NCBI GenBank assembly: GCA_028707175.1
Contig: JAQTUV010000003.1
Coordinates: forward strand, 372,001 to 436,000
Direction: 5' to 3'
Source: Sideroxydans sp.
Lineage (GTDB): Bacteria; Pseudomonadota; Gammaproteobacteria; Burkholderiales; Gallionellaceae
DNA: 64,000 nucleotides
The notes below the pieces were generated by a model that had not been told where the DNA came from, did not search any database, and was given only the letters and a program-made list of their open reading frames with translations. The number at the start of each line of letters is the position of its first letter. Positions within the stretch are counted from its first letter, which is position 1. Positions 16,503 to 49,757 of the stretch are shown piece after piece. The position numbers and the translations under genes are program-made.

Positions 16503-16529
16503 CTTGAAATATCCAGCGCCGCCCTGATG
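16503..16529 (+). promoter_or_regulatory. Putative sigma-32 promoter upstream of dnaK
   Basis: CTTGAAA-N12-CCCTGATG, similar to the sigma-32 consensus. Confidence 0.5.
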
Positions 16530-16586
16530 TTAGGCGGCAAGCAACAACATTCATTCTTAAAGCATTTAACTGAAAGGAACAGCATC

Positions 16587-18515
16587 ATGGGAAAAATCAT
16601 TGGTATTGACTTGGGCACCACAAACTCTTGCGTAGCCGTCATGGAAAATGGCAAGACGAAGGTCATTGAGAACGCAGAAGGTACGCGCACAACGCCTTCC
16701 ATCATCGCCTACATGGAAGATGGTGAAGTCTTGGTGGGCGCGCCCGCTAAACGTCAGGCTGTGACCAACCCAAAGAACACCCTATACGGCGTGAAGCGTC
16801 TGATTGGTCGTCGCTTTGAAGAGCCTATGGTTCAAAAAGACATCAGCATGGTTCCTTACTCCATCGTTAAAGCCAAGAACGGCGATGCATGGATCAAGGT
16901 TCGCGATAAAGATATTTCTGCACCAGAAATCTCCGCTGAAATTTTGATGAAGATGAAGAAGACCGCTGAAGACTACTTGGGTGAGACTGTCACCGAAGCC
17001 GTTATCACCGTGCCTGCTTACTTCAACGATGCACAACGCCAAGCCACTAAAGACGCTGGCCGTATCGCCGGTCTAGATGTGAAGCGCATCATCAACGAAC
17101 CAACAGCGGCTGCGCTGGCGTTCGGTATGGACAAACAAGAAGGCGACCGCAAGATCGCGGTGTATGACTTGGGCGGCGGTACGTTCGACGTCTCCATCAT
17201 TGAAATCGCTGAGATCGACGGTGAACACCAGTTCGAAGTGTTGTCCACCAACGGTGACACCTTCCTCGGCGGTGAAGACTTCGACATGCGCATCATCGAC
17301 TTCCTGATCGACGAGTTCAAAAAGGAAAGCGGCGTTGATCTGAAGAAAGACATGCTGGCTCTGCAACGTCTGAAGGACGCTGCTGAAAAAGCGAAGATCG
17401 AATTGTCTTCTGCACAACAAACCGAAGTGAACCTGCCTTACATCACTGCGGATGCCACAGGCCCTAAGCACTTGGCCGTGAAAATCACTCGCGCCAAGTT
17501 GGAAAGCTTGGTGGAAGAACTGATCGCACGCACCATCGAGCCATGCCGTATCGCCATGAAGGATGCGGGCGTAACTAATGCCGACATCGCTGACGTGATT
17601 TTGGTCGGTGGTCAGACTCGTATGCCCAAAGTACAAGACAAGGTCAAAGAGTTCTTTGGCAAAGAGCCACGTAAAGACGTGAATCCTGACGAAGCCGTAG
17701 CGGTTGGCGCGGCCATCCAAGGCGGCGTGTTGCAAGGCGAAGTAAAAGACGTGCTGTTGCTGGACGTGACTCCATTGTCTCTGGGTATTGAGACCATGGG
17801 CGGCGTGATGACAAAACTCATCAAGAAGAACACAACGATCCCTACCAAGGCATCACAAGTGTTCTCCACAGCGGATGACAACCAATCTGCGGTGACCATC
17901 CACGTGCTGCAAGGCGAGCGTGAAGTCACTTCAGGCAATAAGAGCTTGGGCCAATTCAATCTGTCAGACATTCCACCTGCACCACGTGGCATGCCACAGA
18001 TCGAAGTGACCTTCAACATCGATGCTAACGGTATCTTGCATGTGGGCGCGAAAGATAAAGCCACAGGTAAAGAAGCTAACATCACCATCAAAGCAAGTTC
18101 TGGTTTGAGCGAAGAAGAAATTCAACGCATGGTGGCTGATGCTGAAGCCCACGCTGATGACGACAAAAAGTCAGTTGAACTGGTTGGTGCACGTAACCAA
18201 TTAGACGGCCTCATCCACTCCACTAACAAGTCGATGAAGGAATACGGCGAGCAATTGTCTGCTGATGAGAAGGCTGCGATCGAAGCTGCCCTCAAAGAAG
18301 CAGAAGAAGTAGTTAAGGGCGACGATAAGGCGGCCATTGATGCCAAGTCTGAAGCATTGGCAACAGCTGCGCAAAAACTGGGCGAAAAGATGTACGCCGC
18401 AGAACAAGCTAAGGCACAAGCATCTGGTGCTGAAGGTGGCGCGCAAGCTGAACAGCCAAAACACGACGACAACGTAGTGGATGCTGAATTCACCGAAGTG
18501 AAGGATAAGAAGTAA
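16587..18515 (+). CDS. dnaK: Chaperone DnaK (Hsp70)
   Basis: [42 protein letters not shown]...; internal ATG with SD GAAAGGAAC. Confidence 0.98.
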
Positions 18516-34454: not shown

Positions 34455-34901
34455 TCAAGTCCCTGTGACCGCATATTGCTCCAAAACCTTAAGCATCTTG
34501 GCCAAGCCCTGATCCGTTTCTTCGTACGGGTAGTCAAAGAGGTCGATTTTAAGCCAGCGAGATTCCTGTCCGGGATGCACATACTGTTCGAAGTCGTCGA
34601 CCAAGCATACGTCCTGCGGATCAACATTTGGAATGAACTTGAGGTCTTTCGTTTCCCCATGCCATGCAATGTATTCGATGGAGGCAAACCATGCAGGCGC
34701 TACGCCTTCTTCAACCAATAGCGTTGCGATCTGGCGAAACCGCCCCTCTTTCACGGTGGTGAACATGACAACGCGAGGGAATAGTTGAGCGCACCGAGAC
34801 AGAAATTCAAACAGACCCGGCCGAGGAATCTGACTCATGGCGTTCGATATCAACGTTCCTTCAAGATCGAGTGCAAGAACGTTGGCTTTAGTGTTGTTCA
34901 T
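34455..34901 (-). CDS. HAD-like phosphatase superfamily protein
   Basis: VLALDLEGTLISNAM...VVMFTTVKEGRFRQIATLL...VCLVDDFEQYVHPGQESRWLKIDLF; DxxGT and C-terminal D motifs. Confidence 0.6.
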   Translation of the reverse strand: MNNTKANVLALDLEGTLISNAMSQIPRPGLFEFLSRCAQLFPRVVMFTTVKEGRFRQIATLLVEEGVAPAWFASIEYIAWHGETKDLKFIPNVDPQDVCLVDDFEQYVHPGQESRWLKIDLFDYPYEETDQGLAKMLKVLEQYAVTGT

Positions 34902-34916
34902 GGCTACTCCTTTCAG

Positions 34917-35411
34917 TTAAAGACCACCACCATGCTTACTGCTACCGCTCAAGGGGAGTGCCTCACCTTTAACGATGCCTTTCTCGATACTGATTAATAG
35001 TTCGTTATCGTAGTTACTGCCATAGCCCATATGAACATAATTCACGATGTCTCCCTGCCCACAACGTAAGACACCACTGAACCAGTCCGCAAAGATCGGC
35101 AAAGTTTTCCCTGGAAAAATCTCTTCAAGAGTCGGCGTATTCGCCATATTCCCCAATGCTTCCCACACCCCCCTCTCCTCGTCGCTCATATTGACATGCC
35201 ATCTACGCCCCACCTCTACGTCTAACCCAACGAGATAGAGCTGGCCATCCGCAATCTCCCACTCGCCGATGTATCCTCTCCAACAATTAGATCTCATCCA
35301 AGGGAAAGTAGGCTTCATACCATTCGCCTCGAAATATGCCGCCAATGGCTCTGAACAAAGCTTGACCAACTTGCCTTCATGTCTAAATCGTTCTGGTATC
35401 TGTGCAGTCAT
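34917..35411 (-). CDS. Conserved-looking hypothetical protein
   Basis: MTAQIPERFRHEGKLVKLCSEPLAAYFEANGMKPTFPWMRSNCWRGYIGEWEI...; start moved to 35411 because the upstream part of the ORF overlaps a terminator-like hairpin. Confidence 0.55.
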   Translation of the reverse strand: MTAQIPERFRHEGKLVKLCSEPLAAYFEANGMKPTFPWMRSNCWRGYIGEWEIADGQLYLVGLDVEVGRRWHVNMSDEERGVWEALGNMANTPTLEEIFPGKTLPIFADWFSGVLRCGQGDIVNYVHMGYGSNYDNELLISIEKGIVKGEALPLSGSSKHGGGL

Positions 35412-35423
35412 CAACCTCTCCAA

Positions 35424-35456
35424 TGAACAGCCCATCACAAGGATGGGCTGCTTTAG
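35424..35456 (-). terminator. Terminator-like hairpin between two small genes
   Basis: AACAGCCCATC-ACAAG-GATGGGCTG inverted repeat. Confidence 0.5.
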
Positions 35457-35459
35457 TTC

Positions 35460-35963
35460 TTAGATTGCAATCGCATTGGGCAGTCCACGCAAGATCTTCT
35501 CCAGATCAGCGCTGCCCTCCTTGTTCATTTTGTACATCTTCCACATCATCCAGTCGAGGTACAAAAACAGAAATCCGATGAAGACCAACATGGTCACAAC
35601 ACCCAAAATAGCAAGTGCGATCATGAAGGGCACCATCCAGATTTGAGGCTTGGTGACAGCATTGTCACAATAATATGCACGACCATCCCCTCGCTTCAGC
35701 GCCACCAACATTAGGAACTTTGAATTCTTCACACGAAGACAGTGCATCTCAACCACTTCACCCGCTTCAAATGCCGCTTCCAGAATGCCATTGATTCCGA
35801 TTGGTGCGCTGACTGCACGAATGACCGTGCCATCAGCCATCTCGATATGGCTGTATTCCTTGTAACTGACGCTCACATTGCTATTGGTTGCCTTGTTATT
35901 GCTAACGCTAGTCACACCTGCGCCCAAGAACTTGATTGTTCCTTTGAAAGTTTCAACGCTCAT
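35460..35963 (-). CDS. Hypothetical membrane protein (167 aa)
   Basis: Long hydrophobic segment MVPFMIALAILGVVTMLVFIGFLFLYLDWMMWKMY; N-terminal soluble domain. Confidence 0.6.
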   Translation of the reverse strand: MSVETFKGTIKFLGAGVTSVSNNKATNSNVSVSYKEYSHIEMADGTVIRAVSAPIGINGILEAAFEAGEVVEMHCLRVKNSKFLMLVALKRGDGRAYYCDNAVTKPQIWMVPFMIALAILGVVTMLVFIGFLFLYLDWMMWKMYKMNKEGSADLEKILRGLPNAIAI

Positions 35964-35984
35964 TTGTATTCCCCATTCTTGTTA

Positions 35985-36047
35985 ATGACCCGCTATTCGA
36001 CATTACCTTTGAGCAGCGGAAAACTCATTCAGGTAATGTAGAAACGG
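35985..36047 (-). promoter_or_regulatory. Conserved upstream hairpin/promoter-like element, copy B
   Basis: Minus strand: CCGTTTCTACATTACCTGAATGAGTTTTCCGCTGCTCAAAGGTAATGTCGAATAGCGGGTCA; CCGCT/AGCGG pairing; similar to copy A. Confidence 0.55.
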
Positions 36048-36076
36048 GAGCTAGATGGGAATTTTGAAACGAGGCG

Positions 36077-36835
36077 TTAAATTTCAATCACCAGATTGGG
36101 ATCGAATGTTGGATTCTCCGGTGGCTGCCCCAGCTTGCAATATCCACGCGGATTACAAACGACACGTGTGCCATTCAACTCATAGTCAAAACTATCGTGC
36201 GTATGACCGTGAATCCAAAGTTTGCTGTAGCCCATCAGGTTATCAAAGTCAGAAGCAAAACAGGCAGACAACAATTCCTTGCGATAACGTTCAGCGACCG
36301 AATGCGATGAAGGTAAATGATGTGTCACAACAACCGTGGCGCCATCGAATCTCTCATGCTTTAACTTGTTTTCCAACCAAGCGACATCCTCCGCATTGAT
36401 CTCGGCAGAGTCTTGCGGCATGAACGTGTTCACGCCAAAATCGATCACTCGAAAATCACGCAAACCATTCAAGCCAGCTGCATACGCCCAAGGGCGCTCA
36501 GCCTCACCGAATAATTTGAAGTCCGTCCATAACGTCGCACCTAAAAAACGCACACCATCGATCACCACCTCGCCCCGGTTGAGCACATGTACGCCATACA
36601 CCTTGGCGGCCATCTCCATCTGCTCATTCTCGATACCCATCTCAGAGCGGTAATACTCGTGATTACCCGGAACGAACACGATCTCCTTATCAGGCCAAGC
36701 CATCCTTGCCCACGCGATGCCGCGCGTGCTCAGGCAGATGTCGCCTGCCAGCACGATGACATCCGCCTCCACCGCAGCCGGCTCATAAACCGTGTACTCG
36801 ATGTGCAGATCACTAAGGATGTGTATTTTCATCAC
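36077..36835 (-). CDS. Calcineurin-like metallophosphoesterase
   Basis: MKIHILSDLHIEY, VLAGDI, VPGNHEYY, VVVTHHLPS, WIHGHTHDSFDYE. Confidence 0.88.
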   Translation of the reverse strand: MMKIHILSDLHIEYTVYEPAAVEADVIVLAGDICLSTRGIAWARMAWPDKEIVFVPGNHEYYRSEMGIENEQMEMAAKVYGVHVLNRGEVVIDGVRFLGATLWTDFKLFGEAERPWAYAAGLNGLRDFRVIDFGVNTFMPQDSAEINAEDVAWLENKLKHERFDGATVVVTHHLPSSHSVAERYRKELLSACFASDFDNLMGYSKLWIHGHTHDSFDYELNGTRVVCNPRGYCKLGQPPENPTFDPNLVIEI

Positions 36836-36868
36836 TGAGGGGTCGCTGATTTATTTGCATATTTTTCA

Positions 36869-36961
36869 GGTCGGATTCCCTGCGGGGTTCTCGTCCCCTC
36901 TGAGGGGCACCCGACAATTCATTCAGAATCAACCCTCGCTGTCGGGTTGAAACCCGACCTA
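36869..36961. repeat. Diverged/extended REP-like element
   Basis: AGGTCGG... to ...TGTCGGGTTGAAACCCGACCTAC; same arm architecture as 26456 and 29408 copies with compensating changes in the inner stem. Confidence 0.6.
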
Positions 36962-36994
36962 CAAAAGTTGGCGTGGCAATACATAAACACTTTC

Positions 36995-37765
36995 CTAATT
37001 TTCCTTTCGGTACGCGCGTCGCTCATCCAGTTCACCTGCTTTGATGATCGCGCCATTTATATCTTTGATACCACGCAGCCCAACGCCATACGCCTTGAAT
37101 CCCATCCTCTCCCATTTGGGCTGGTAGTCGAGATTGTCATGTTGGTGACCATGAAAACTTTTCAGCACACCCATACTGGTCGCCAATTCATCAATCGCCA
37201 TGAAGCCGTGCGGATGGCAGGATGGTGCTTCGTGCGTCACCAAGATGTCGGCTTCTTGCGCGGCGAGTTGGTAGTAGTCGTTACTGAATATCGTGGAGCG
37301 ATGCTTGAGCTGCTTGCCTCGCGCTTTAGCGAGTTGGCTTTGCACTGCGCTACTTGGATTACTCGCCATCGCAAGCATGCGCCCTACTTCTGAGCGCACC
37401 ATGTAGTCGTCATAGCTTTCGTAGTTTGGATAATTATCGAGCGGATTGGGCCACCAAACCTCTTGCCGAAACACCCCGCCCAGCCCCGCCACCCGCACCC
37501 CGTCGATCTCTACGACTTTGCCATGTAGGTTGCGTTGCGCCAATTTAGACTCAGTCAGGTACGCGAGATGCGCTTCGCTGTCTGCATCGTGGTTGCCGTG
37601 GATATACCAGACCTCGGTCTTACCCACGACCTTGTGCAACTCCTCATGCAATGGGCGCTGCGCTTCGATATCACCCAGCAAGATGATGGCGGCAGGACGA
37701 TGCTCGTCCACGGCACGTTCAACGTGCGCGAACTTTCCATGAACATCACCAAAAAATAGGATCAT
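36995..37765 (-). CDS. Calcineurin-like metallophosphoesterase
   Basis: MILFFGDVHGKFAHVERAVDEH, ILLGDIE, IHGNHDADSE, LVTHEAPSCHP, FHGHQHDNLDY. Confidence 0.85.
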   Translation of the reverse strand: MILFFGDVHGKFAHVERAVDEHRPAAIILLGDIEAQRPLHEELHKVVGKTEVWYIHGNHDADSEAHLAYLTESKLAQRNLHGKVVEIDGVRVAGLGGVFRQEVWWPNPLDNYPNYESYDDYMVRSEVGRMLAMASNPSSAVQSQLAKARGKQLKHRSTIFSNDYYQLAAQEADILVTHEAPSCHPHGFMAIDELATSMGVLKSFHGHQHDNLDYQPKWERMGFKAYGVGLRGIKDINGAIIKAGELDERRAYRKEN

Positions 37766-37777
37766 CTCAACCGCCCT

Positions 37778-38320
37778 CTACCAGCACGAACTATGCAACA
37801 AGCGAATCGGTTTCCCTTCCCGCTCCCCACCTGTCTCACGTAGACGCAACAACTTCGTCTGCAACTCCCGCTGCGTCGTTTCTACCCCAAGCCCTAACCA
37901 GTGATCGGTATGTACCAAAGCATCACGTCCCGATTCAGGCCAACGCTCATCGTCGTCATCAATCGCCAACCAGTTGATGATTTGGTGACGGCTAACGTAC
38001 TCAGCGATTTGCTCATAACGTGTCAGGCTACCCCAGCGATATTGCTCTTTAGCACTATGCCAAGTCGAGCCAGCGACACGTTCTTGCAATGCTTTAGGAA
38101 GATACGCCTTTACATCATCGAAGCGCTTCAAGCTCGAACACCACGATGTGCTCAGCACGATATTCACCTCAGGGAATGGCTCAAGCAAAGTGGCCAGCAA
38201 CTCTGCATGCTCGAACAATTGATGTTCAGGCCCAGCTTCCAGCACGATGCCGCGCCCGTGGTATTTATAAACCTCGGAGGGGTGAAGTACACCGTCAAAA
38301 TCTAAGAAAAGAATCGTCAT
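37778..38320 (-). CDS. HAD-domain protein (resembles HAD domains of RNA-repair-associated proteins)
   Basis: MTILFLDFDGVLHPSEVYKYHG...VNIVLSTSWCSSLKRFDDVKAYLP...INWLAIDDDDERWPES. Confidence 0.7.
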   Translation of the reverse strand: MTILFLDFDGVLHPSEVYKYHGRGIVLEAGPEHQLFEHAELLATLLEPFPEVNIVLSTSWCSSLKRFDDVKAYLPKALQERVAGSTWHSAKEQYRWGSLTRYEQIAEYVSRHQIINWLAIDDDDERWPESGRDALVHTDHWLGLGVETTQRELQTKLLRLRETGGEREGKPIRLLHSSCW

Positions 38321-38428
38321 GTCTCAACTCGCATCAACTAACCAAGCGCAAGATTGCCTTGGGTATTGATGAAACGATTAAGGCGATGAGATTTTGAAAT
38401 TGCCTGAACGATAAAGCAATTTCGATGT

Positions 38429-39490
38429 TCATCGAACGCTTGGCTCCAGCGCAGTGACTGAATCTACCAGCCCACTGGCTTGTATATTTTTGAGCACATC
38501 TTGCTCAAGATTTTCATTCACCCTCACCCGATACTGACCAAACTCCCCTGGCCCATCCACGATGCTGGCATTGAGCTGAGTGAGTAATTTGCGGATGTCG
38601 ACTGCTTTGGCATCTGGCTTGAAATACACTTCAAGATAGGCGTAGTTCACTGGAGCTTGAGGTACGGCGCGATATTCCTGAGAGTGTTCATATCTCAATT
38701 CATCCTTGGACTGCCCCCCCATCATGTTGGCGATGATGACGGTCTGCACCAACATCACACTCGCCGCTATCGCCCAACCTACATTGGTATTAAAGCGGCT
38801 GCGTTGCGGAAGTTGAACCACATTGCTAGTTGAATGCTGTTGTTCCAAGGTTTGTGCGGCAGTGCGATAAAGGGTTTGGTATTGCCTACGCGAATCTTCT
38901 GGGTGAGTGATACAGGTTCCAGAAAGTACCACTGCTCCGCTATGCGTTTTAAGTGGAGCAACGAACCCAGCACGAGCCCCCCCTCCTTCTTCGCACTCTC
39001 CATTGGCGACTTCGCGCATCGCTGCCATTCGGTCAGAAGCTAGCAGTGCTAATACTTTGCTGCCCTTGCTGATATCTACTGATACAGGATTCCATGTCTG
39101 CACCATGGCAGCGATTGGGTCGAACGGTTCATCCTTAGGTTCAAGCAATACATCTCGGTTAGACGCATAGTCAGTTTCAGGTGATACAAACCAGCCAGAC
39201 CAAACTTTCCCAACCTTGGGATGATCGAGTAACACGCACGATGGGGCTAGGTTGTTCTGCAGTCCATCAAAGCGCCATATCTGCCCTGCTTTTGGCTGGG
39301 TATCAAAGTGCGCTTCGCGAGTGGCGATGCGCTTGCGCACCTTGTCGCGGATGAAAGCGGGCATCTCACTATCGACTATATCGACAGATTCACTCGACGT
39401 CTCCGATCTGTCGGGGAAATGCAGCACACTCCCCGAACCATTTTGTAGCTTACTTGCGATCACTTCTATTGGCGGCCAGAGACTTCTCAT
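38429..39490 (-). CDS. Putative membrane anti-sigma-factor-like protein
   Basis: Single TM (VGWAIAASVMLVQTVIIANMMG) plus C-terminal domain VYFKPDAKAVDIRKLLTQLNASIVDGPGEFGQYRVRVNENL typical of anti-sigma/ZAS-type C-termini; ATGA overlap with the sigma-like gene. Confidence 0.55.
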   Translation of the reverse strand: MRSLWPPIEVIASKLQNGSGSVLHFPDRSETSSESVDIVDSEMPAFIRDKVRKRIATREAHFDTQPKAGQIWRFDGLQNNLAPSCVLLDHPKVGKVWSGWFVSPETDYASNRDVLLEPKDEPFDPIAAMVQTWNPVSVDISKGSKVLALLASDRMAAMREVANGECEEGGGARAGFVAPLKTHSGAVVLSGTCITHPEDSRRQYQTLYRTAAQTLEQQHSTSNVVQLPQRSRFNTNVGWAIAASVMLVQTVIIANMMGGQSKDELRYEHSQEYRAVPQAPVNYAYLEVYFKPDAKAVDIRKLLTQLNASIVDGPGEFGQYRVRVNENLEQDVLKNIQASGLVDSVTALEPSVR

Positions 39491-40212
39491 CTCAAGCTCC
39501 GTTTCTGTTGATGCTGATGTAACGATTCATGACACAAGATTTTTAAAGCCGAGATGACAGCAGGGTTCGGACTGAGCTCCAAACCGAGTTCTTTTGATAA
39601 CCAGCTCCCGATTTGGGTAGATTCGTAGCCATCCCCAAACTCCCCTTTCTTGCGCGTGATGCCCAGTTGATTGGCGCGATAGTGATAGGAGGGAATGCGG
39701 TATTGCTCGGCTAACTTATAGAGTGGCTCGGGTGCATCCGCACAGGCATGCAGCGCCAGATAGATGCGGCCGACATCATCCAGTTGTTCGAGGAATGCTT
39801 GGGCTTGGGTCTGCACGGCTTGATGCGTAAGTTTGTAATCCACGAATTCAGAATCTGCAGGAGAAAGTGCGTTAGCTGACTCTCCGCAGCTTCGTTCCAC
39901 CTCACTCCAATCTTCAATCAGATCGGTCGTGCGCAATCCTGCGCTGCGATACACATCGGTGAGATAGTTATTGAAGTAGCTGCACAGTTCATTCGCACCA
40001 TACGGGCAGGCGCTATTGTGTTTGGCTGGCTCAAACACCTTGAGCAGGAAGAAATCTTGGATGTAATACTCTTTCTTCTCAGGAAGTGAGTTGAGGATGT
40101 GTGGATTGCTACGTTTGAGAATACTGACGACGAACTGGTACAACTCACCCCATTCAGCTTCGGTCAGTTCATCACGGCTTTTCCAAAGCTGAAGGAGACG
40201 GTCTGTTTGCAT
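39487..40212 (-). CDS. Sigma-70-like (ECF-related) protein
   Basis: N-terminal sigma2-like helix region (EYYIQDFFLLKVFEPAKH...ELCSYFNNYLTDVYR) and C-terminal HTH-like region (EPLYKLAEQYRIPSYHYRANQLGITRKK); coupled to a TM anti-sigma-like gene. Confidence 0.5.
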   Translation of the reverse strand: MQTDRLLQLWKSRDELTEAEWGELYQFVVSILKRSNPHILNSLPEKKEYYIQDFFLLKVFEPAKHNSACPYGANELCSYFNNYLTDVYRSAGLRTTDLIEDWSEVERSCGESANALSPADSEFVDYKLTHQAVQTQAQAFLEQLDDVGRIYLALHACADAPEPLYKLAEQYRIPSYHYRANQLGITRKKGEFGDGYESTQIGSWLSKELGLELSPNPAVISALKILCHESLHQHQQKRSLR

Positions 40213-40258
40213 AGATTAGGCTGTTATTTTTTTAAGGAATATACCATAGGGAATACAC

Positions 40259-41605
40259 CTATTTGGCTGCCTGACCAATGTCCCGTTGAAAACCTTTTAG
40301 CATCCCGCTAACCGTATTCATATCAAGCTTCTCGCCTAACATCACAGACACTTCAAGCAAGTTTCGTTGTGCCGAAAGATATCCCTGATCTGCCGCCAAC
40401 TTGAAATAGCGCTGCGCCTGCGGATAGTCCGATTTGACACCGATGCCATCCATATAGATCGCACCTAAGTTGTTCTGCGCCACGGGGTAACCCTGCTTAG
40501 CAGCCGCCTTGGTCCAACTCAACATCTTGGGGTTACTGCGCGGTATGCCTCTGCCATCTTGCTGCCCTTTACCCAGTAGATACGCCCAACCTAATGTGGT
40601 TTGAGCGACAACATCACCACGCTTGGCTTTGGCTTCCAACGCGGGCAATTCGTCTAGCGTGAGATTGCGTGCATTGATCTCGATTTCGTAACCTTCACGG
40701 TTGTAATCACGCGCGGTGTGTGTCGGCTTTGCGGGTTTGCTCTCAAGCAATGAAGGTTTTGACGCAACAGCGGAAGGCGGTTGGGGGATGCTGGGGACTG
40801 GCACCAAGGCGGGTGCGCTGACGGGTTTGATTACATCGCTCGGCGGCACAAAATAAAAATCGCCCATGAGTGATGAACTCTCCCACGGAATCTGACGATC
40901 ATTGGTTTCTTTGGTGACCGCGATACGCACTTCCTTAAAAAGTTGTTCAACTGGCATGGCAGGTATCGACAACTTATCGACTAGGTGGCGGGTATAAACG
41001 CTATTCGAACCGTCACCATCTTTAGCCAATGATCCAGGCTCTGTTGAGAAAGCGATGAGTGTTCCTTTGGGGGCTCCCATCTGAGCCAGACCAACATTGC
41101 CTGAGCGTGTCACTCGTGCGAAGGGATTATTACGGCACGCATCTAACACGAGCAAATTCACCCGAGTCTTCGCACTATCCATACGCGACAGAACAAGATT
41201 GGCATCTATGCCGCGAAACTCGATGTCATCTTCATGCTGGATATCCGCATCCACTGGGATCAAGAAGTTTCTTCCTTTGATCTGCATGCCGTGACCAGCG
41301 TAGTAGAACAAACCAACCCCGCCCTCTTTGAGTAGTTTGCGGAACTCTCCGATGGATTGATGCATGCCTTCACGGTTCATGTTCTCGCGCAAGATGACTT
41401 GGAAGCCTAACTTCTCAAGCTTGGCTGCAACAGCTCTGGCATCGTTCACAGGATTGCGCAGCGCACCGTTCTGATAGTTTCCGTTGCCAATGACTAACGC
41501 CGCACGCGACTCTTCCACATTCGGGCTAGCTGCCTGAACGGTTGAAGAAACTATCGCGAAGATAACCAATAGAGTTGTGCTAAAGCGGTTCAATGTAATT
41601 CTCAT
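40259..41605 (-). CDS. Caspase-like (C14) peptidase with Sel1 repeats, secreted N-terminus
   Basis: Signal-like MRITLNRFSTTLLVIFAIVSSTVQA; AALVIGNGNYQNGALRNPVNDARAVAAKLEKLGF; FYYAGHGMQIKG (His); LLVLDACRNNPF (Cys); Sel1-like repeats. Start (about 41605) is approximate. Confidence 0.88.
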   Translation of the reverse strand: MRITLNRFSTTLLVIFAIVSSTVQAASPNVEESRAALVIGNGNYQNGALRNPVNDARAVAAKLEKLGFQVILRENMNREGMHQSIGEFRKLLKEGGVGLFYYAGHGMQIKGRNFLIPVDADIQHEDDIEFRGIDANLVLSRMDSAKTRVNLLVLDACRNNPFARVTRSGNVGLAQMGAPKGTLIAFSTEPGSLAKDGDGSNSVYTRHLVDKLSIPAMPVEQLFKEVRIAVTKETNDRQIPWESSSLMGDFYFVPPSDVIKPVSAPALVPVPSIPQPPSAVASKPSLLESKPAKPTHTARDYNREGYEIEINARNLTLDELPALEAKAKRGDVVAQTTLGWAYLLGKGQQDGRGIPRSNPKMLSWTKAAAKQGYPVAQNNLGAIYMDGIGVKSDYPQAQRYFKLAADQGYLSAQRNLLEVSVMLGEKLDMNTVSGMLKGFQRDIGQAAK

Positions 41606-41645
41606 CAGTATCGGATTTATAGCGTCCCGCAGAGTATCAAGGTCT

Positions 41646-41813
41646 TTATTGATCTGCCACAAATATCAGCTTGGCATCCAGATCATGACGTAACCACAAG
41701 AACATATCCCTTGCCGCCGCCTCGACCTTGGTCAGAGAGAAGCACTCATCGACCAATCCAGTCTGGCACTCGATGAAGGACTCCCTCTGATTCACTCTTT
41801 CGCTTTCAGACAT
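41646..41813 (-). CDS. Small ORF (55 aa) not in the supplied track
   Basis: Read by hand: MSESERVNQRESFIECQTGLVDECFSLTKVEAAARDMFLWLRHDLDAKLIFVADQ; its ATG directly follows the TAG of the AAA gene (TAGATG). Confidence 0.55.
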   Translation of the reverse strand: MSESERVNQRESFIECQTGLVDECFSLTKVEAAARDMFLWLRHDLDAKLIFVADQ

Positions 41814-43796
41814 CTAAACAAACCCCATTGGGCGAGGCACCTTCACCTCCGGTAGTCTCAAGTGTTGAGCCCTCAAGGGAACTGAGACTTTCTGTTGCCC
41901 CACCTTGAGTTCACGACACGCGCGTTGCATCGCGAGCAATATCTCGCGCTTCAGCTCGCGGCCGTTCAACTCTTCGCAGCCCGCCAGCGCCTCAAGCATA
42001 CCTGGAGCGAGCTCGGGTGACAGAAAGCCCTGAAACCCCTCTTGCTCTAGCAATTCCTGATAGGTCGTCTTTACCATCATGCAACGCCCCGCGTAATCCA
42101 ATGGTTGGACTTCGATGTGATGAAAGCGGGACACCAAAGGTTCAGGTAGCTCACTGATGTCATTCGCTGTCGCGATGAACGATGCATGGGATATGTCCAA
42201 TGGAATGTCAATGAACGAATCCTTAAAGCACTTCGACGATTCCTTCTCAAGCAACAGCAAGATAACGGACAAAGGATCGCTCTTCTCGTCCTTCTTCGTC
42301 TTGTCGATCTCATCCAACAGGAAAATCGGATTGGCGATGTCTTGCGTTGCAAACAGATGTGCCACCGTCCCCTCGCCAGCCGTTCCCCAGTAGCGGCTCA
42401 GGCCACAGATTCTGAAAGCATCAGGCACGCCAGCCAATTGAATATCCGCAAACGCAACGCCCAATATCTTGGCGATGCGCTTGATGTAGCGAGTCTTGCC
42501 CACGCCAGGGGCACCAGATAAAAGCAAGGGAGGCAATTGTGCAGAACGCCCAGTGATCATCTGCGCATGCAGCGTATTGATGATCAGCTCGGTCACTTCT
42601 GCAAAGTTGGGTTGCTCTTCCCCCAGCCTTTCGATTTCGGCCAGCGCTTGGGCCGGCACGTGCATCACCTTCTTGGGCTTAGTGATGCCCTTCAGACCAC
42701 CTAACCTTTTCTCATTATCTTTGTCCGACTCCTGCCCCAATCGCTCATGGAACAACTTGGAGTCGCAGACGGTGATGAAGGATTCAAGAGCGGTCTCTTG
42801 CTTTTGATCAGGTTCGATGTTTTGGATCGATTCACTCACCTCTGCCTCCACTTTGTCTGGATGGTTTTTTAGAACATTGTCTAGCTCAGCTCCGAGCTTG
42901 ATCGATAGAACATGTTTTTGACCAAGATAGGTATTCGACTTAGTCATCGCAGATCTTAGAATCGTCTTTGAGCGATCTGCCATTCCCATCTTGAAACACG
43001 CCCTTGCCAAACGTCCATGAGCCATCAGCGTCTCTTCGTGATATTCCCCATGAATACTTGTCAATGCAGAAACGTTGAACTCAAGTAGTGACAGTGCCTT
43101 TTGGTTTTCCCCTGCTTGCAGTAGGCAGGCAGCAGTTTGGTGATTTGCCTCCAAAGTCGATGGATGCGTATCACCCAATATCCCTTTGCGAATCTGGCGA
43201 ACCTCTTCCATGTAACCTACCGAACCAGAGACATCGCACGCAAAATATCCTTTTGCCAATTCGGACGCAGACGTATCGTCCTGATATCCGCCTTCTGGAC
43301 GACAATCAAGAGCACCCTCAAGTGCCTGCTTATAGAAAGCTTCGTACAGCGGATCAACGGAGCAGAGATTTCCAATCAATTCCAATGAATCGACAATCCG
43401 AACGATCGAATCACTGATCCTTAGAATAGCTTCGCAATCGAATGCGTCGCCCTCAAGTCTTATAGAAACCTCAGCCAACGCCTTCGGCTCAGGCACCGTA
43501 TACCACTTGAATCCAGGAGCGATCTCATCGAGCCGATCATTGATAGCGTTAAAGAAGATCAGTAGCAAACCATTCACCCCAAAGGCCTCATCCACATCGA
43601 GATTCTTGCCTTGGATAGTGAACTGAATGTCCTGCGCGCCGAAATGATCCTGCAACTTCTGCGAGAGCGCAGTCACCACATCAAACCTCAGCGGCTTTTT
43701 GCAACTAATTTCCATCCTTCTAAGCAGATCCTCGATATCTCTCTGCCTTTGCATATCTTGAGTATCAGAAAATACTTTTGTGTTTTGCTGTGACAT
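41814..43796 (-). CDS. TPR-containing AAA+ ATPase with Lon-like ATPase module
   Basis: Walker A LLLSGAPGVGKTRYIKRIAKILG, Walker B NPIFLLDEIDKTKK, FIATANDISELPEPLVSRFHHIEVQPLD; N-terminal TPR-like segment GDTHPSTLEANHQTAACLLQAGENQKALSLLE. Confidence 0.8.
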   Translation of the reverse strand: MSQQNTKVFSDTQDMQRQRDIEDLLRRMEISCKKPLRFDVVTALSQKLQDHFGAQDIQFTIQGKNLDVDEAFGVNGLLLIFFNAINDRLDEIAPGFKWYTVPEPKALAEVSIRLEGDAFDCEAILRISDSIVRIVDSLELIGNLCSVDPLYEAFYKQALEGALDCRPEGGYQDDTSASELAKGYFACDVSGSVGYMEEVRQIRKGILGDTHPSTLEANHQTAACLLQAGENQKALSLLEFNVSALTSIHGEYHEETLMAHGRLARACFKMGMADRSKTILRSAMTKSNTYLGQKHVLSIKLGAELDNVLKNHPDKVEAEVSESIQNIEPDQKQETALESFITVCDSKLFHERLGQESDKDNEKRLGGLKGITKPKKVMHVPAQALAEIERLGEEQPNFAEVTELIINTLHAQMITGRSAQLPPLLLSGAPGVGKTRYIKRIAKILGVAFADIQLAGVPDAFRICGLSRYWGTAGEGTVAHLFATQDIANPIFLLDEIDKTKKDEKSDPLSVILLLLEKESSKCFKDSFIDIPLDISHASFIATANDISELPEPLVSRFHHIEVQPLDYAGRCMMVKTTYQELLEQEGFQGFLSPELAPGMLEALAGCEELNGRELKREILLAMQRACRELKVGQQKVSVPLRAQHLRLPEVKVPRPMGFV

Positions 43797-43972: not shown

Positions 43973-46900
43973 TCACTTCGCTTGCAGTCTAGGTTCAACC
44001 GACGTTCCTGATAAGGCAAGAGCAGAACTACCCGCACGCATCTTAATTTCAGCGTTCAAGCTGCCAGATAGTTGATCGTTGGGGGCAACATCCATAGATC
44101 CACTGGCGCTCAACATACCTGATGCAATTTTTAGCTGGCGATAACGCTGATGATGATTCTCAATTTGTAAGGTACCAGTGAATTCATCAAAGTGAGTTCG
44201 TCCCCCTAACAGGTGGGTTCGACTCCCCAAACGCGCCGTTTCGACCACGTCCACACCATTGATGCTCCCCTTCTTGGCAGTGAAAGTCACTTCGACTTTC
44301 GGTGTCTCACCTAACTGCGCCAAATTAGCACTTTGCAAATTGTAGGAGCCATCTGCGAACACCTCCCCTGTCACACCATATTGCGGCAAAATTTTCACGA
44401 GTTCCATTGTCTTGGCTTGAAACCTTCCTTGGACTTGCCACCCTTTTAGCCAGCTCACCTTGCCATTCCCAGACAATATTCCATCGTAAGCATGCCCATC
44501 GATTTGATTGATGACAACCTCACCATGAGACAGATTTCCTTTGGCTGTAAAGTCACTAAATATGATCTGCGGCACAAAGGGTAATGAACGCTCTTTTATT
44601 CCAAAAGATATTTGCCAGTTACTATTTCCGCGCAACAGTTCGATGTTCATCTTCTCATCTTCACTGTGTAAGACAACCCTTGAAACTAGCTGGTCAGACA
44701 GCTCCACCCCGCCTCTTAGAACAGGCAATTTAAACCCCTCTGTCGCGACGGTTACGGAGGAAAGCGTCATATGCCTAATTGGATAGTGCTCATCCGCAGC
44801 CACATGGCTTAACCACTCTAAAGACTGCTCGAATGTCTTTCCATCTAACACCAAACTACTCAATTCCGCTTCACTAATAGCTTTTTGACTAGCAAAGATT
44901 TTTGTTACATCAAACTTCAACAACACGCTGTCAACTTTGACTTCTTCACCTTGACCAATCACTACATTTTTTAAGGACAGTGATGGGGTCGGCAACAGTG
45001 ATGCAGAGATACCGCCGACCTTAACCACTTGCGTAAATTGGTTAGAAAGACGCTTCTCAATGACGGGAATATAGTTCTGCATCGGCCACACCAAGGGAAG
45101 CACGAATAACGCAATCAAACTAACGAAAATTAGCCCGACGAATATCTTGCCGAGCGGAATCGAAGATGAACGCGACCTCGAACGAGTTGCTCTTCCTTGA
45201 GTAAGCGGCGCCTGCTGCACAACTTTCTCCGTTTGTACATTAGCTTGAAGCTTGGCACGTTGCTCGGCCTCGGCCCAAGCCTGCGCTTGCGCTGAGGATA
45301 AGGCCTGTTCTTCTATATCTATTTGAGCTTCTTGTGCTGCGTTGCTCTTGGCAAGCGCTAGTTCTGACTTTAATTTTTCTTTCGTCTCAGCCGCTTCTCG
45401 CTTAGCCGCTTCAGCTTCAGCTAACTTACTCTGCTCAGCCAAAAGTCTCTCTTCCTCTTTTTGCTTTAACTGCGCATTCTCCGATTTAATTTCATCTACT
45501 TTAGGTGCAGTGCTAAGCGCATTGATATGCAAAGCACTCAAATCAATTTTGAAGCTACCGGAACGTGTTGCAAAGGTATCCTTGTTAGCCACTTTCTTTT
45601 CAGGCGTTGGTTGATTCTCAGAATCCAACCGATCTGCAACTTCATTCACCAATACTCGGCTCTTTTCTTCCTCCACCTTTGCTTTAGCTGCATCAAATTC
45701 CGCTTTTTGACGCGCAGCCTCAGCCTCCTGCTTCACACGCACCTCCGCCAACGCCTTTGCGTCCAATTGCGCTTTTACTTTCACAGCTTCCAGCTCTGCT
45801 TTCACATTGATAGCATCTTGCTCTGCTTTCTGACGAAGTGCCTCTTGCTGTTTTTTTAGCAATAGTGCTTCTGCATCCCTAGCAGCTCGCTCTGCTGATT
45901 CTTGCTCCTGTTTGATGCGGGCAGCCTCAAGTTCTGTTTTTTGACGGGCTGTCTCCGCTTCCTGTTTAATACGTGCAGCCTCAAGCTCTGCTTTTTGACG
46001 GGCTGTCTCAGCTTCCTGTTTAATGCGTGCTGCCTCATGCTCTGCTTTTTGACGGGCTGTCTCAGCTTCCTGTTTAATGCGTGCTGCCTCATGCTCCGCT
46101 TTTTGACGGGCTGTCTCAGCCTCTTGTTTAGCGCGTGCCTCGGCCAGTTTTTTTGCCTCGACTTCAGCCTTTGCCTTAGCCTCTTCCAATTCAGCTCTAA
46201 TTTTTTCAGCCTCTTGCACCGCTTTAATTCGGGCTTGCTCTTGCTGCTCTTTTACTCGCGCGGCTTCAGCCTCTTTTTTGATTTTTTCTTCAGCTTCGGC
46301 TTTTGCGCGGGATATCGCTTCTTGCTCTGCCTTGACGCGCGCAGCCTCCTGCTCGACCTTTTGACGAGCAGCTTCAGCCTCATGCCTAGCGCGCTCTTCA
46401 GCCAAACTCTTCGCCTCAGCCTCCATACGTGCTTTGACCAGCTCTAACTCGGCCTTCGCCTTGGCAGCCTCTTCTATCGCTTTTAAGCGCTCAACTTCTA
46501 TTTGCTTCTTAATACGAGCAGCCTCTACCTCTCGCTTGACTCGCTCAGCCTCTTCAGCCTTTAAACGCAGCACAGCTTCTTGCTCAATCTTTAGACGTGC
46601 AGCCTCCTGTTCGGCCTTCAGACGAGCAGTTTCAGCTTCATGTTTGGCCCGAGCCTCAGCCAAAATTTTAGCCTCAGCCTCAATTCGTGCTTTAGCGGCT
46701 TCTAGATCGGCTTTGGTCTTACTCGCTTCTTGTTCCGATTTAACTTTGGCCGCTTCCAACTCAGCCTTGATCCGTGCAGCCTCTTGGGTTGCCCTCTGCA
46801 TTGCTTCATGCTCAAGCTTTTTAGCTTGTAACTCTTTTTCAACTCTTAACTTCTCAGCTGCTTCCTGAATGTTTTTTTGTTTACTAGCTTCAGCAGCCAA

Positions 46901-47212
46901 CACTGCAGCACTGGGAACAGCGACCATACTAGTAAAATCCAGCTCTTCATTCATCAGTGGTGCGAGAGGTTTCGGCACCACCAACTTAGGCGCAATAATC
47001 AACTTATCCTTATCACGCACCAATTCAGCTTCTAGCAATCGTTGAATAATTTCGGGCAGTTCGCTTCGCAAACTAGGAGGAGCGCGCTTTCCAACTTCGT
47101 CCAACGTAGCTTTATCGTCGATTAACAACATGACTCGCTTCATGTCCCCAGACATACTGGACATTTCGCTTTCGCCTTTTGGGGTTTTAATCAATACAGT
47201 TTTTTTATCCAT
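43973..47212 (-). CDS. Giant coiled-coil protein with single TM and AsmA-like C-terminal domain
   Basis: About 500 aa of Ala/Glu/Lys/Arg-rich heptads, TM (IFVGLIFVSLIALFVLPLVW), C-terminal YIPVIEKRLSNQFTQVVKVGGISASLLPTPSLSLKNVVIGQG AsmA-like pattern. Confidence 0.7.
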   Translation of the reverse strand: MDKKTVLIKTPKGESEMSSMSGDMKRVMLLIDDKATLDEVGKRAPPSLRSELPEIIQRLLEAELVRDKDKLIIAPKLVVPKPLAPLMNEELDFTSMVAVPSAAVLAAEASKQKNIQEAAEKLRVEKELQAKKLEHEAMQRATQEAARIKAELEAAKVKSEQEASKTKADLEAAKARIEAEAKILAEARAKHEAETARLKAEQEAARLKIEQEAVLRLKAEEAERVKREVEAARIKKQIEVERLKAIEEAAKAKAELELVKARMEAEAKSLAEERARHEAEAARQKVEQEAARVKAEQEAISRAKAEAEEKIKKEAEAARVKEQQEQARIKAVQEAEKIRAELEEAKAKAEVEAKKLAEARAKQEAETARQKAEHEAARIKQEAETARQKAEHEAARIKQEAETARQKAELEAARIKQEAETARQKTELEAARIKQEQESAERAARDAEALLLKKQQEALRQKAEQDAINVKAELEAVKVKAQLDAKALAEVRVKQEAEAARQKAEFDAAKAKVEEEKSRVLVNEVADRLDSENQPTPEKKVANKDTFATRSGSFKIDLSALHINALSTAPKVDEIKSENAQLKQKEEERLLAEQSKLAEAEAAKREAAETKEKLKSELALAKSNAAQEAQIDIEEQALSSAQAQAWAEAEQRAKLQANVQTEKVVQQAPLTQGRATRSRSRSSSIPLGKIFVGLIFVSLIALFVLPLVWPMQNYIPVIEKRLSNQFTQVVKVGGISASLLPTPSLSLKNVVIGQGEEVKVDSVLLKFDVTKIFASQKAISEAELSSLVLDGKTFEQSLEWLSHVAADEHYPIRHMTLSSVTVATEGFKLPVLRGGVELSDQLVSRVVLHSEDEKMNIELLRGNSNWQISFGIKERSLPFVPQIIFSDFTAKGNLSHGEVVINQIDGHAYDGILSGNGKVSWLKGWQVQGRFQAKTMELVKILPQYGVTGEVFADGSYNLQSANLAQLGETPKVEVTFTAKKGSINGVDVVETARLGSRTHLLGGRTHFDEFTGTLQIENHHQRYRQLKIASGMLSASGSMDVAPNDQLSGSLNAEIKMRAGSSALALSGTSVEPRLQAK
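45905..46125. repeat. 54-bp tandem repeat encoding KAE(H/L)EAARIKQEAETARQ
   Basis: GACGGG(CTGTCTC) recurs at 45943, 45997, 46051, 46105, exactly 54 bp apart; the two central units are nearly identical. Confidence 0.9.
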
Positions 47213-48491: not shown

Positions 48492-49757
48492 ATGTCTGTT
48501 GAAACTCCCGCCCGCGCTTGCGGCATCGATTTTGGTACATCTAATTCCACGGCAGGTTGGCTGCGCCCCGGACAATCACCATTACTCGCCTTGGAAGATG
48601 ACAAGGTCACCTTGCCTTCCGTGATTTTTTTTAATGCTGACGAAAATACCGTAAGCGTTGGGCGAGCAGGTCCTGGCGAATATTTGGAAGGCTACGAAGG
48701 GCGTCTAATGCGCGCCTTAAAGAGCCTGTTAGGCAGCAATCTGATGGAAGGAAAAACCGAAGTTCAAGGACGTTCGCGAACCTACATGGAATTGTTGACA
48801 CAGTTCATTGCCGAACTCAAAAATCGAACTGAAGTGGCGGCAGATAGATCTTTTGAGCAAGCCGTGTTCGGCCGCCCGGTGTTTTTCGTTGATGACGATA
48901 CAGCGGCTGACCGCAAGGCGGAGACGACCCTCGAAGCTATCGCCCACGCCACTGGCTTCCGTGAGGTAAGCTTTCAGTACGAACCCATCGCTGCGGCATA
49001 TCACTACGAACGCCAAATTGACCGCGAGGAACTCGTACTAATTGCCGACATCGGCGGCGGCACCTCAGATTTTTCATTGATCCGCCTCTCGCCACAACGT
49101 GCCCAACTCGTCGATCGGCGCGATGATTTACTGGCCAATGGCGGCGTACACATCGGTGGCACCAACTTCGACCAACAATTAAGTCTGGCTAGCGTTATGC
49201 CTTTGCTAGGCTATCGTAGCCAACTCAAACGGGGCTTAGAAATGCCCGCTAGCTGCTACATCAATCTAGCCACTTGGCACACTATCAATCAAGTGTATAC
49301 CCGCCGAACTTGGGCTGAACTACAGGAGCTGTATTTGGACACCCAATCGCCTGAAGCCATGGATCGGCTATTCAAATTGATTCGCGAACGCTCTGGTCAT
49401 TGGCTGGCCATGCAGGTAGAAGAAGCCAAGATCGCATTATCCGCCGGAGACAGCACAATCCTACATCTTGATCGGCTCGCCCCAGACCTGCGCCATACGC
49501 TAACTCGGATCGAATTCGAACAGGCTTCGACGCAGTTGGTAGAAAAAATCGGAACCACCCTAAATGTATTGCTGAAAAAAGCTGGGGTGCGTTACGAGGC
49601 AGTGGATACTGTTTTTTTCACTGGCGGCGCTAGCGGCGTACCCATGCTGCGCGAACGCATCTCAGCCATGTTGCCTCATGCACGGCGCGTAGAAGGTGAT
49701 TTATTCGGCAGTATCGGTACAGGCCTAGCAGTAGAAGCACAACGTCGCTTCGGCTGA
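48492..49757 (+). CDS. Hsp70-family protein (YegD-like, short form without substrate-binding lid)
   Basis: ACGIDFGTSNSTAGWLRPG; LIADIGGGTSDFSLIRL; VFFTGGASGVPMLRERI. Confidence 0.88.
   Translation: MSVETPARACGIDFGTSNSTAGWLRPGQSPLLALEDDKVTLPSVIFFNADENTVSVGRAGPGEYLEGYEGRLMRALKSLLGSNLMEGKTEVQGRSRTYMELLTQFIAELKNRTEVAADRSFEQAVFGRPVFFVDDDTAADRKAETTLEAIAHATGFREVSFQYEPIAAAYHYERQIDREELVLIADIGGGTSDFSLIRLSPQRAQLVDRRDDLLANGGVHIGGTNFDQQLSLASVMPLLGYRSQLKRGLEMPASCYINLATWHTINQVYTRRTWAELQELYLDTQSPEAMDRLFKLIRERSGHWLAMQVEEAKIALSAGDSTILHLDRLAPDLRHTLTRIEFEQASTQLVEKIGTTLNVLLKKAGVRYEAVDTVFFTGGASGVPMLRERISAMLPHARRVEGDLFGSIGTGLAVEAQRRFG

What the first reader, a model, noticed from the sequence alone, without database searches (positions are those of the whole stretch)
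37778..43796. Compact cluster: TPR-AAA+ (Lon-like), 55-aa ORF, caspase-like/Sel1, sigma-like, anti-sigma-like, HAD
All genes are on the minus strand and tightly spaced. TAG/ATG adjacency joins the AAA and 55-aa ORFs, and ATGA overlap joins the sigma-like and TM anti-sigma-like genes. Components: an ATPase with Lon-type AAA module but no recognisable Lon protease domain, a caspase-fold protease with His (YYAGHG) and Cys (DACRN) motifs, and a sigma/anti-sigma pair. Established analogy: bacterial caspase-like proteases and sigma factors occur together in some signalling/defence systems. Inference: a stress or defence pathway in which proteolysis releases a sigma-like factor. The protease has a predicted signal peptide, so its compartment relative to the cytosolic ATPase is an open question.
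Basis: partly seen in the sequence, partly recalled or inferred. Interest (0 to 1): 0.65.

Follow-up and report, generated by a model that had tools for sequence, protein, structure and literature searches.

The report
Membrane sigma switch with periplasmic caspase
Three adjacent genes look like a switch that carries a signal across the bacterial inner membrane (a highly divergent sigma factor, a membrane-spanning anti-sigma factor and a secreted caspase-type protease); in Variovorax relatives the same three kinds of gene sit inside the gene cluster for a type VI secretion weapon, but the protein families of the sigma/anti-sigma pair have no existing annotation.

Summary
The core is smaller than claimed: sigma-like 39487-40212, membrane anti-sigma 38429-39490 and, with less certainty, the caspase 40259-41605. 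The sigma-like protein has no Pfam, NCBIfam or PADLOC hit, but profile-profile comparison aligns it along sigma2-sigma4 with ECF sigma factors (E 2e-4; no shuffle of 60 comes close). The neighbour has three parts: a cytosolic domain predicted to have a MazF-like fold, one transmembrane helix, and a periplasmic domain homologous to the fervidolysin-prodomain-like domain of a true zinc-finger anti-sigma factor. That factor lies in an ECF sigma / anti-sigma / subtilase operon. The pair is adjacent in all 32 loci of a genome-collection scan. In 26 of 26 sufficiently long Variovorax loci a secreted caspase follows; 25 of them continue into T6SS genes. Best reading: a transmembrane sigma switch gated by a periplasmic protease. 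Cleavage of the anti-sigma factor, or its release, is inferred and not shown. The Lon-like AAA, the 55-aa ORF and the HAD gene are not part of the conserved unit. A defence role is not supported. New variant of a known kind, with an unannotated protein-family pair.

The parts
39487..40212 (-). Divergent ECF-type sigma factor (241 aa): sigma2-like helices about 18-90, HTH (sigma4-like) about 130-183, C-terminal extension 190-241
   Evidence: hhalign of its family (A5) to 41 diverse ECF sigma factors: score 32.65, E 2.4e-4, 161 columns; 60 column shuffles at most 17.8; reversed 13-14. AF2 all-helical, pLDDT 75.8. No curated family hit.
38429..39490 (-). Transmembrane anti-sigma factor (353 aa): cytosolic 45-221 with MazF/PemK-like predicted fold, TM 237-257, periplasmic fervidolysin-prodomain-like domain 275-347
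   Evidence: AF2; Foldseek PDB 36 hits E<=1e-3, all of them MazF-type toxins by their descriptions; BLASTP 39% over 67 aa, E 4e-10, to the periplasmic domain of a zf-HC2 anti-sigma factor, which matches PF22148 E 8e-9
40259..41605 (-). Secreted caspase-fold protease (Peptidase_C14, His YYAGHG, Cys DACRN, signal peptide, C-terminal Sel1 repeat); candidate activating protease
   Evidence: Pfam C14 E 1e-38; signal peptide and dyad; 46 nt upstream of the sigma gene
40236..40259 (-). Two copies of GGTRTATTCC, 14 bp apart, just upstream of the sigma start: candidate autoregulatory or operator element (weak)
   Evidence: The only two exact copies in the 64 kb window; a GGTATATTTCC lies about 20 nt upstream of the 68%-identical relative's sigma gene in L016
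41814..43796 (-). TPR plus Lon-like AAA ATPase without peptidase domain; neighbour, possibly co-transcribed, not part of the conserved module
   Evidence: absent beside the pair elsewhere

Best explanation
The genes encode a membrane-spanning sigma/anti-sigma switch with a periplasmic protease. The anti-sigma protein holds a divergent ECF sigma factor through its cytosolic MazF-fold domain and exposes a protease-prodomain-like domain in the periplasm. An envelope signal activates, or changes the binding of, the secreted caspase. The caspase acts on the periplasmic domain; further proteolysis frees the sigma factor, which transcribes its regulon (in Variovorax probably the surrounding T6SS cluster; here unknown, since this genome has no TssF). 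Shown computationally: the genes, their conserved pairing, sigma homology at profile level, homology of the periplasmic domain to that of a true anti-sigma factor, and signal peptide and catalytic dyad of the caspase. Inferred: sigma binding, cleavage, signal and regulon.
For: Sigma and anti-sigma adjacent in 32 of 32 loci. Three deep sigma lineages carry the pair: window plus JA1.bin11, Sulfuritalea, Variovorax. Sigma homology; the only NCBIfam hits of 14 family members are two sigma-factor models; the top viral-structure match and 5 of the 50 listed are sigma factors, none significant alone. Periplasmic domain: Pfam Fervidolysin_NPro-like as top hit, E 0.018, under the cut-off; BLASTP E 4e-10 and HMM E 2e-12 to an anti-sigma factor with zf-HC2 (E 1e-6) lying between an ECF sigma gene and an S8 subtilase gene. 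A caspase adjoins the pair in 26 of 26 long enough Variovorax loci, often overlapping by ATGA; both active-site motifs were found in 23 and a hydrophobic N-terminal segment in 20.
Against: The closest relative (68%, L016) has no caspase on its 7.7-kb contig, whose 5' end lies 756 bp before the sigma gene. The caspases of the window and Variovorax are only distantly related (E 0.005) and lie on opposite sides of the pair, so the protease seems swapped or recruited twice. In Sulfuritalea the periplasmic tail differs and Sel1 proteins, not a caspase, follow. Burkholderiaceae keep the sigma gene without the anti-sigma gene. The MazF fold rests on one AF2 prediction (mean pLDDT 68.5) and is not supported by profile comparison. 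The sigma model found no significant PDB match.
Confidence: 0.6

Rival explanations
1. A sigma/anti-sigma pair controlled by another protease or by ligand binding to the periplasmic domain. The caspase is an output or a chance neighbour rather than the trigger.
For: No caspase beside the pair in the closest relative or in Sulfuritalea. The periplasmic domain resembles a subtilase prodomain, and in the zf-HC2 analogue the neighbour is a subtilase, so the natural partner could be a serine protease. Different caspase architectures: Sel1 here, DUF4384 in Variovorax.
Against: Caspase genes are expected to be a small share of a genome (not counted here), yet one adjoins the pair in two of the three pair-bearing lineages; in both it is predicted to be secreted, with active-site motifs.
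Confidence: 0.27
2. A cytosolic stress or antiviral pathway: the Lon-like AAA and caspase degrade a regulator on phage infection.
For: Caspase-fold and Lon-type proteases release sigma factors in CRISPR systems (Craspase, PMC10028731; CalpL/T/S, PMC11417357). AAA and caspase lie in tandem here.
Against: The caspase carries a signal peptide; the AAA lacks a peptidase domain and is not conserved with the pair; PADLOC gives no system, only domain-level matches; the conserved context elsewhere is T6SS.
Confidence: 0.06
3. The sigma-like protein is a degenerate sigma homologue that acts as an adaptor or transcription co-factor (for example of T6SS assembly), not as a sigma factor.
For: Extreme divergence, no curated sigma hit; stand-alone copies in Burkholderiaceae without the anti-sigma gene.
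Against: Segments that align to region 2.2-2.4 and to the HTH are among the conserved ones (F54, Y79-F80, L84, D86, R89, SYHYRA 175-180). In three lineages coupled to a membrane partner, and in two of these its periplasmic domain is one otherwise found on an anti-sigma factor.
Confidence: 0.12

Closest known systems
ECF sigma / zf-HC2 anti-sigma with C-terminal prodomain / S8 subtilase operon (L167, genome G165 of the same order)
   Same: Gene trio of sigma, single-TM anti-sigma and secreted protease; homologous periplasmic domain (39% over 67 aa)
   Different: Cytosolic domain is a zinc-finger anti-sigma domain, not a MazF-like fold; protease is a subtilase, not a caspase; the sigma factor is recognised by Pfam
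CalpL/CalpT/CalpS (type III CRISPR Lon protease, anti-sigma, ECF sigma; PMC11417357)
   Same: A protease-cleaved anti-sigma factor holding an ECF sigma factor; CalpT is described as a MazF homologue (own knowledge of Rouillon et al., Nature 2023, a paper not held here)
   Different: Cytosolic, activated by cyclic oligoadenylate through SAVED, Lon protease; here transmembrane, secreted caspase, no SAVED domain
Craspase (Csx29 TPR-CHAT, Csx30, CASP-sigma; PMC10028731)
   Same: Caspase-fold protease relieving inhibition of an ECF-like sigma factor
   Different: RNA-guided and cytosolic; no Csx30 homologue was looked for or seen here; CASP-sigma is readily recognised as ECF
E. coli sigmaE/RseA/DegS-RseP
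   Same: Transmembrane anti-sigma with a periplasmic sensing domain, proposed periplasmic first cut (established knowledge)
   Different: Different cytosolic and periplasmic domains and a serine site-1 protease
EcfK/PknS of the Xanthomonas T6SS (ECF43; PMC8999054, PMC13147305)
   Same: ECF-type sigma gene inside a T6SS locus with a Ser/Thr kinase gene nearby (in Variovorax)
   Different: EcfK is activated by phosphorylation, not co-encoded with an anti-sigma factor; the window genome has no TssF
Metacaspase operons with sigma-70 factors (PMC3501461: Myxococcus, Ralstonia and others)
   Same: Caspase gene co-located with a sigma gene
   Different: Those are reported as sigma-70 factors; no anti-sigma factor is described in the passages read

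Membership tests
ECF sigma-70 factor | sigma2 plus sigma4 domains detectable by curated models (Sigma70_r2, r4) | tested here: not met
   No Pfam or NCBIfam match for the window protein; no Pfam sigma match in any of 14 members
ECF sigma-70 factor | Co-linear profile similarity over sigma2-sigma4 | tested here: met
   E 2.4e-4, 161 columns, 0 of 60 shuffles reach it; a less diverse ECF set gave no significant score
ECF sigma-70 factor | Binds core RNA polymerase and directs transcription | not testable with these tools
   Needs experiment
Transmembrane anti-sigma factor | Encoded next to its sigma gene, cytosolic domain, one TM, periplasmic domain | tested here: met
   Adjacency; predicted domains and TM (topology predicted, not measured)
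Class I anti-sigma domain / zf-HC2 | Anti-sigma-domain fold or zinc-finger motif | tested here: not met
   No Pfam match; predicted MazF-like barrel
MazF/PemK fold | SH3-like barrel similar to MazF | tested here: inconclusive
   Structure yes (E 6e-5, TMt 0.70); profile comparison no
Caspase (Peptidase C14) | C14 domain with His-Cys dyad | tested here: met
   133.7 bits; GHG and DACRN
CalpL/T/S | Lon-SAVED protease | tested here: not met
   AAA protein has no Lon peptidase or SAVED domain
CalpL/T/S | Type III CRISPR context | not tested
   No search for Cas10 was made
Known anti-phage defence system | Matches to a full set of defence genes | tested here: not met
   Only domain-level matches: caspase 44 bits, AAA under 18 bits

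The most novel reading that the evidence does not exclude
A caspase acting in the periplasm as the trigger protease of a transmembrane sigma/anti-sigma switch, with a MazF-fold sigma-holding domain outside CRISPR, used by Variovorax to control a type VI secretion system.
Probability: 0.35. Interest if true: 0.78.

Novelty: new variant of a known kind. Interest (0 to 1): 0.6.

Why it matters
Bacterial caspase homologues are common, but few have known substrates (own knowledge). Here a secreted caspase has a concrete candidate substrate, the periplasmic domain of the neighbouring anti-sigma factor, which can be tested in cultivable Variovorax. The pair is also an unannotated sigma/anti-sigma family that standard searches miss. 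If the predicted fold is right, it suggests that MazF-type folds serve as sigma inhibitors outside CRISPR too, and it offers a candidate regulator for a set of Variovorax T6SS clusters.

Tried and rejected
AAA as functional partner: not conserved beside the pair. Phage-borne: no match in phage records. Defence filing: PADLOC domain-level only. Sigma identity by HMMER against solved structures: nothing relevant. First hhalign against an RpoE-dominated ECF set: not above shuffles; a diverse set gave the signal. MazF relation by profiles: no better than shuffles. Conserved promoter or terminator: consensus scans at chance level. T6SS in this genome: no TssF. Fold search of the sigma model in PDB: not significant; sigmaE (1or7_A) had the highest target-normalised TM of the 50 listed, 0.33. 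Literature: no paper found on this trio.
Full report
Observation. The six ORFs are present at the stated positions, with TAG/ATG adjacency between AAA and the 55-aa ORF and an ATGA overlap between the sigma-like and anti-sigma-like genes. Domain searches give AAA plus TPR_12 for the 660-aa protein, with a Lon-type AAA module but no Lon peptidase; Peptidase_C14 plus Sel1 for the caspase; HAD_SAK_2 for the HAD; and nothing usable for the sigma-like and anti-sigma-like proteins. The caspase most likely starts at ATG 41605 with a Sec signal peptide.

Which genes belong together. The sigma-like gene is missing from the other 149 sampled genomes of the family. In the order, 5 of 399 genomes including this one have it. 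Among plasmid records, tblastn found it in five Caballeronia/Paraburkholderia records, and none among phages. A genome-collection scan with the anti-sigma alignment gave 32 loci. A sigma-like gene lies directly before the anti-sigma gene in all 32. The AAA, 55-aa and HAD genes are not near the pair in any of them. The scan used patterns from conserved motifs, so more distant members may be missed.

Variovorax context. Of the 29 Variovorax loci, the 26 with enough downstream sequence carry a caspase gene right after the anti-sigma gene. 25 loci continue into ImpE, TssE and TssF genes. One locus read in detail gives TssM, TagF, a Ser/Thr kinase, MltA, sigma, anti-sigma, caspase with DUF4384, Hcp-like, ImpE and TssF. 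A His motif (YFSGHG) was found in 26 of 26 of these caspases and both motifs in 23; a hydrophobic N-terminal segment was found in 20 (others may have wrongly called starts). The window genome has no TssF and so presumably no T6SS. In Sulfuritalea two loci carry the pair followed by Sel1-repeat proteins, with a trypsin-like protease near one. Burkholderiaceae carry only the sigma gene: no anti-sigma homologue within about 8 kb. Two of those loci also hold T6SS-associated genes. A tree places the window protein with the JA1.bin11 MAG protein (100/98), apart from Sulfuritalea and from a Variovorax plus Burkholderiaceae group.

What the sigma-like protein is. HMMER finds no relevant relative in Pfam or the PDB for the family. 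Two members, from different subgroups, weakly match sigma-factor models in NCBIfam, E 0.003 and 0.1, and these are the only NCBIfam families hit. hhalign of the family profile against 41 diverse ECF sigma factors gives score 32.65, E 2.4e-4, over 161 columns in the right order: region 2.2, region 2.3-2.4, then the HTH of region 4. 60 column shuffles reach at most 17.8 and reversed controls 13-14. The AF2 model is all-helical, mean pLDDT 75.8. Foldseek finds no significant match, but sigma factors are first and 5 of the 50 listed in the viral library. I take it as a divergent ECF-type sigma factor, about 85% likely.

What the anti-sigma-like protein is. The AF2 model shows a cytosolic barrel-plus-helix domain, one TM helix (237-257) and a confident beta-alpha-beta-beta-alpha-beta domain, 281-347, pLDDT about 93. 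Foldseek matches the first domain to MazF toxins: 36 hits at E<=1e-3, TM-score to target about 0.7. Profile comparison with PemK does not support this, so the fold is likely but common descent is not shown. The C-terminal domain has Pfam Fervidolysin_NPro-like as best hit, E 0.018, below the cut-off. A search for that family led to L167: a standard ECF sigma gene, an anti-sigma gene with zf-HC2, TM and the same C-terminal domain, and an S8 subtilase gene in a row. BLASTP between the two periplasmic domains gives E 4e-10 for the single comparison, and the domain HMM gives 2e-12. This ties the window protein to anti-sigma factors through the membrane-distal part. The place of the cytosolic zinc finger is taken by a different domain.

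Mechanism. With an N-in/C-out topology the C-terminal domain lies in the periplasm, where the secreted caspase would also be. In the L167 operon the anti-sigma factor carries a domain of the type that serves as a protease prodomain, next to the gene of a secreted protease. By analogy the periplasmic domain of the window protein may be bound or cut by the caspase, after which intramembrane and cytosolic proteolysis frees the sigma factor, as known for RseA (established knowledge). Caspase-fold and Lon proteases releasing ECF-like sigma factors are established in Craspase (PMC10028731) and CalpL/T/S (PMC11417357), both cytosolic. That CalpT is a MazF homologue is from my own knowledge; the primary paper was not held. 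Cleavage, binding, signal and regulon are inference.

Weak points. The nearest relative lacks an adjacent caspase on its short contig, and the two caspase types are only distantly related, so the protease may be exchangeable or the link partly coincidental. The number of caspase genes per genome was not counted, so no formal probability is given. GGTRTATTCC occurs exactly only twice in the window, both copies between caspase and sigma, with one similar site upstream of the sigma gene in the nearest relative. This is a lead, not a result.

Known or new. Metacaspase operons with sigma-70 factors were noted in 2012 (PMC3501461). ECF43 factors regulate T6SS through a kinase (PMC8999054; PMC13147305). 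ECF54 was proposed to be controlled by proteolysis, with subtilase and CHAT neighbours (PMC8999054). I found no report of this sigma/anti-sigma family or of its T6SS context (open-licence papers only). I rate it a new variant of a known kind.

Noticed in passing
34455-38320: Four phosphatase-like genes in one minus-strand stretch: NIF/HAD-like 34455-34901, two metallophosphoesterases 36077-36835 and 36995-37765, HAD_SAK_2 37778-38320.
   Followed up: no
L167 229-2989: Canonical ECF sigma, zf-HC2 anti-sigma with a C-terminal fervidolysin-prodomain-like domain, and S8 subtilase in a row: an anti-sigma factor carrying a protease-prodomain-like sensor. I found no description of it in the papers searched.
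   Followed up: partly
L007-L011, L013, L015: Burkholderiaceae encode the sigma-like protein alone, without the anti-sigma gene; in L008, L013 and L015 beside a hybrid histidine kinase, in others near T6SS, TOMM bacteriocin or adenylate cyclase genes.
   Followed up: partly
L008, L013, L015 upstream of the sigma gene: Shared upstream sequence (TTTACCC ... CCATAT ... AACCATACT) in three Burkholderiaceae loci, a possible regulatory site.
   Followed up: no
L017, L018: One Sulfuritalea MAG carries two pair loci whose anti-sigma N-terminal regions are 88% identical, each followed by different Sel1-repeat proteins.
   Followed up: no
43973-47212: 1079-aa protein with long K/E/A-rich near-repeats and no Pfam hit at E<=1, directly upstream of the cluster.
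   Followed up: no
48492-49757: Second, divergent HSP70-like protein of 421 aa, besides full-length HSP70 at 16527-18515.
   Followed up: no
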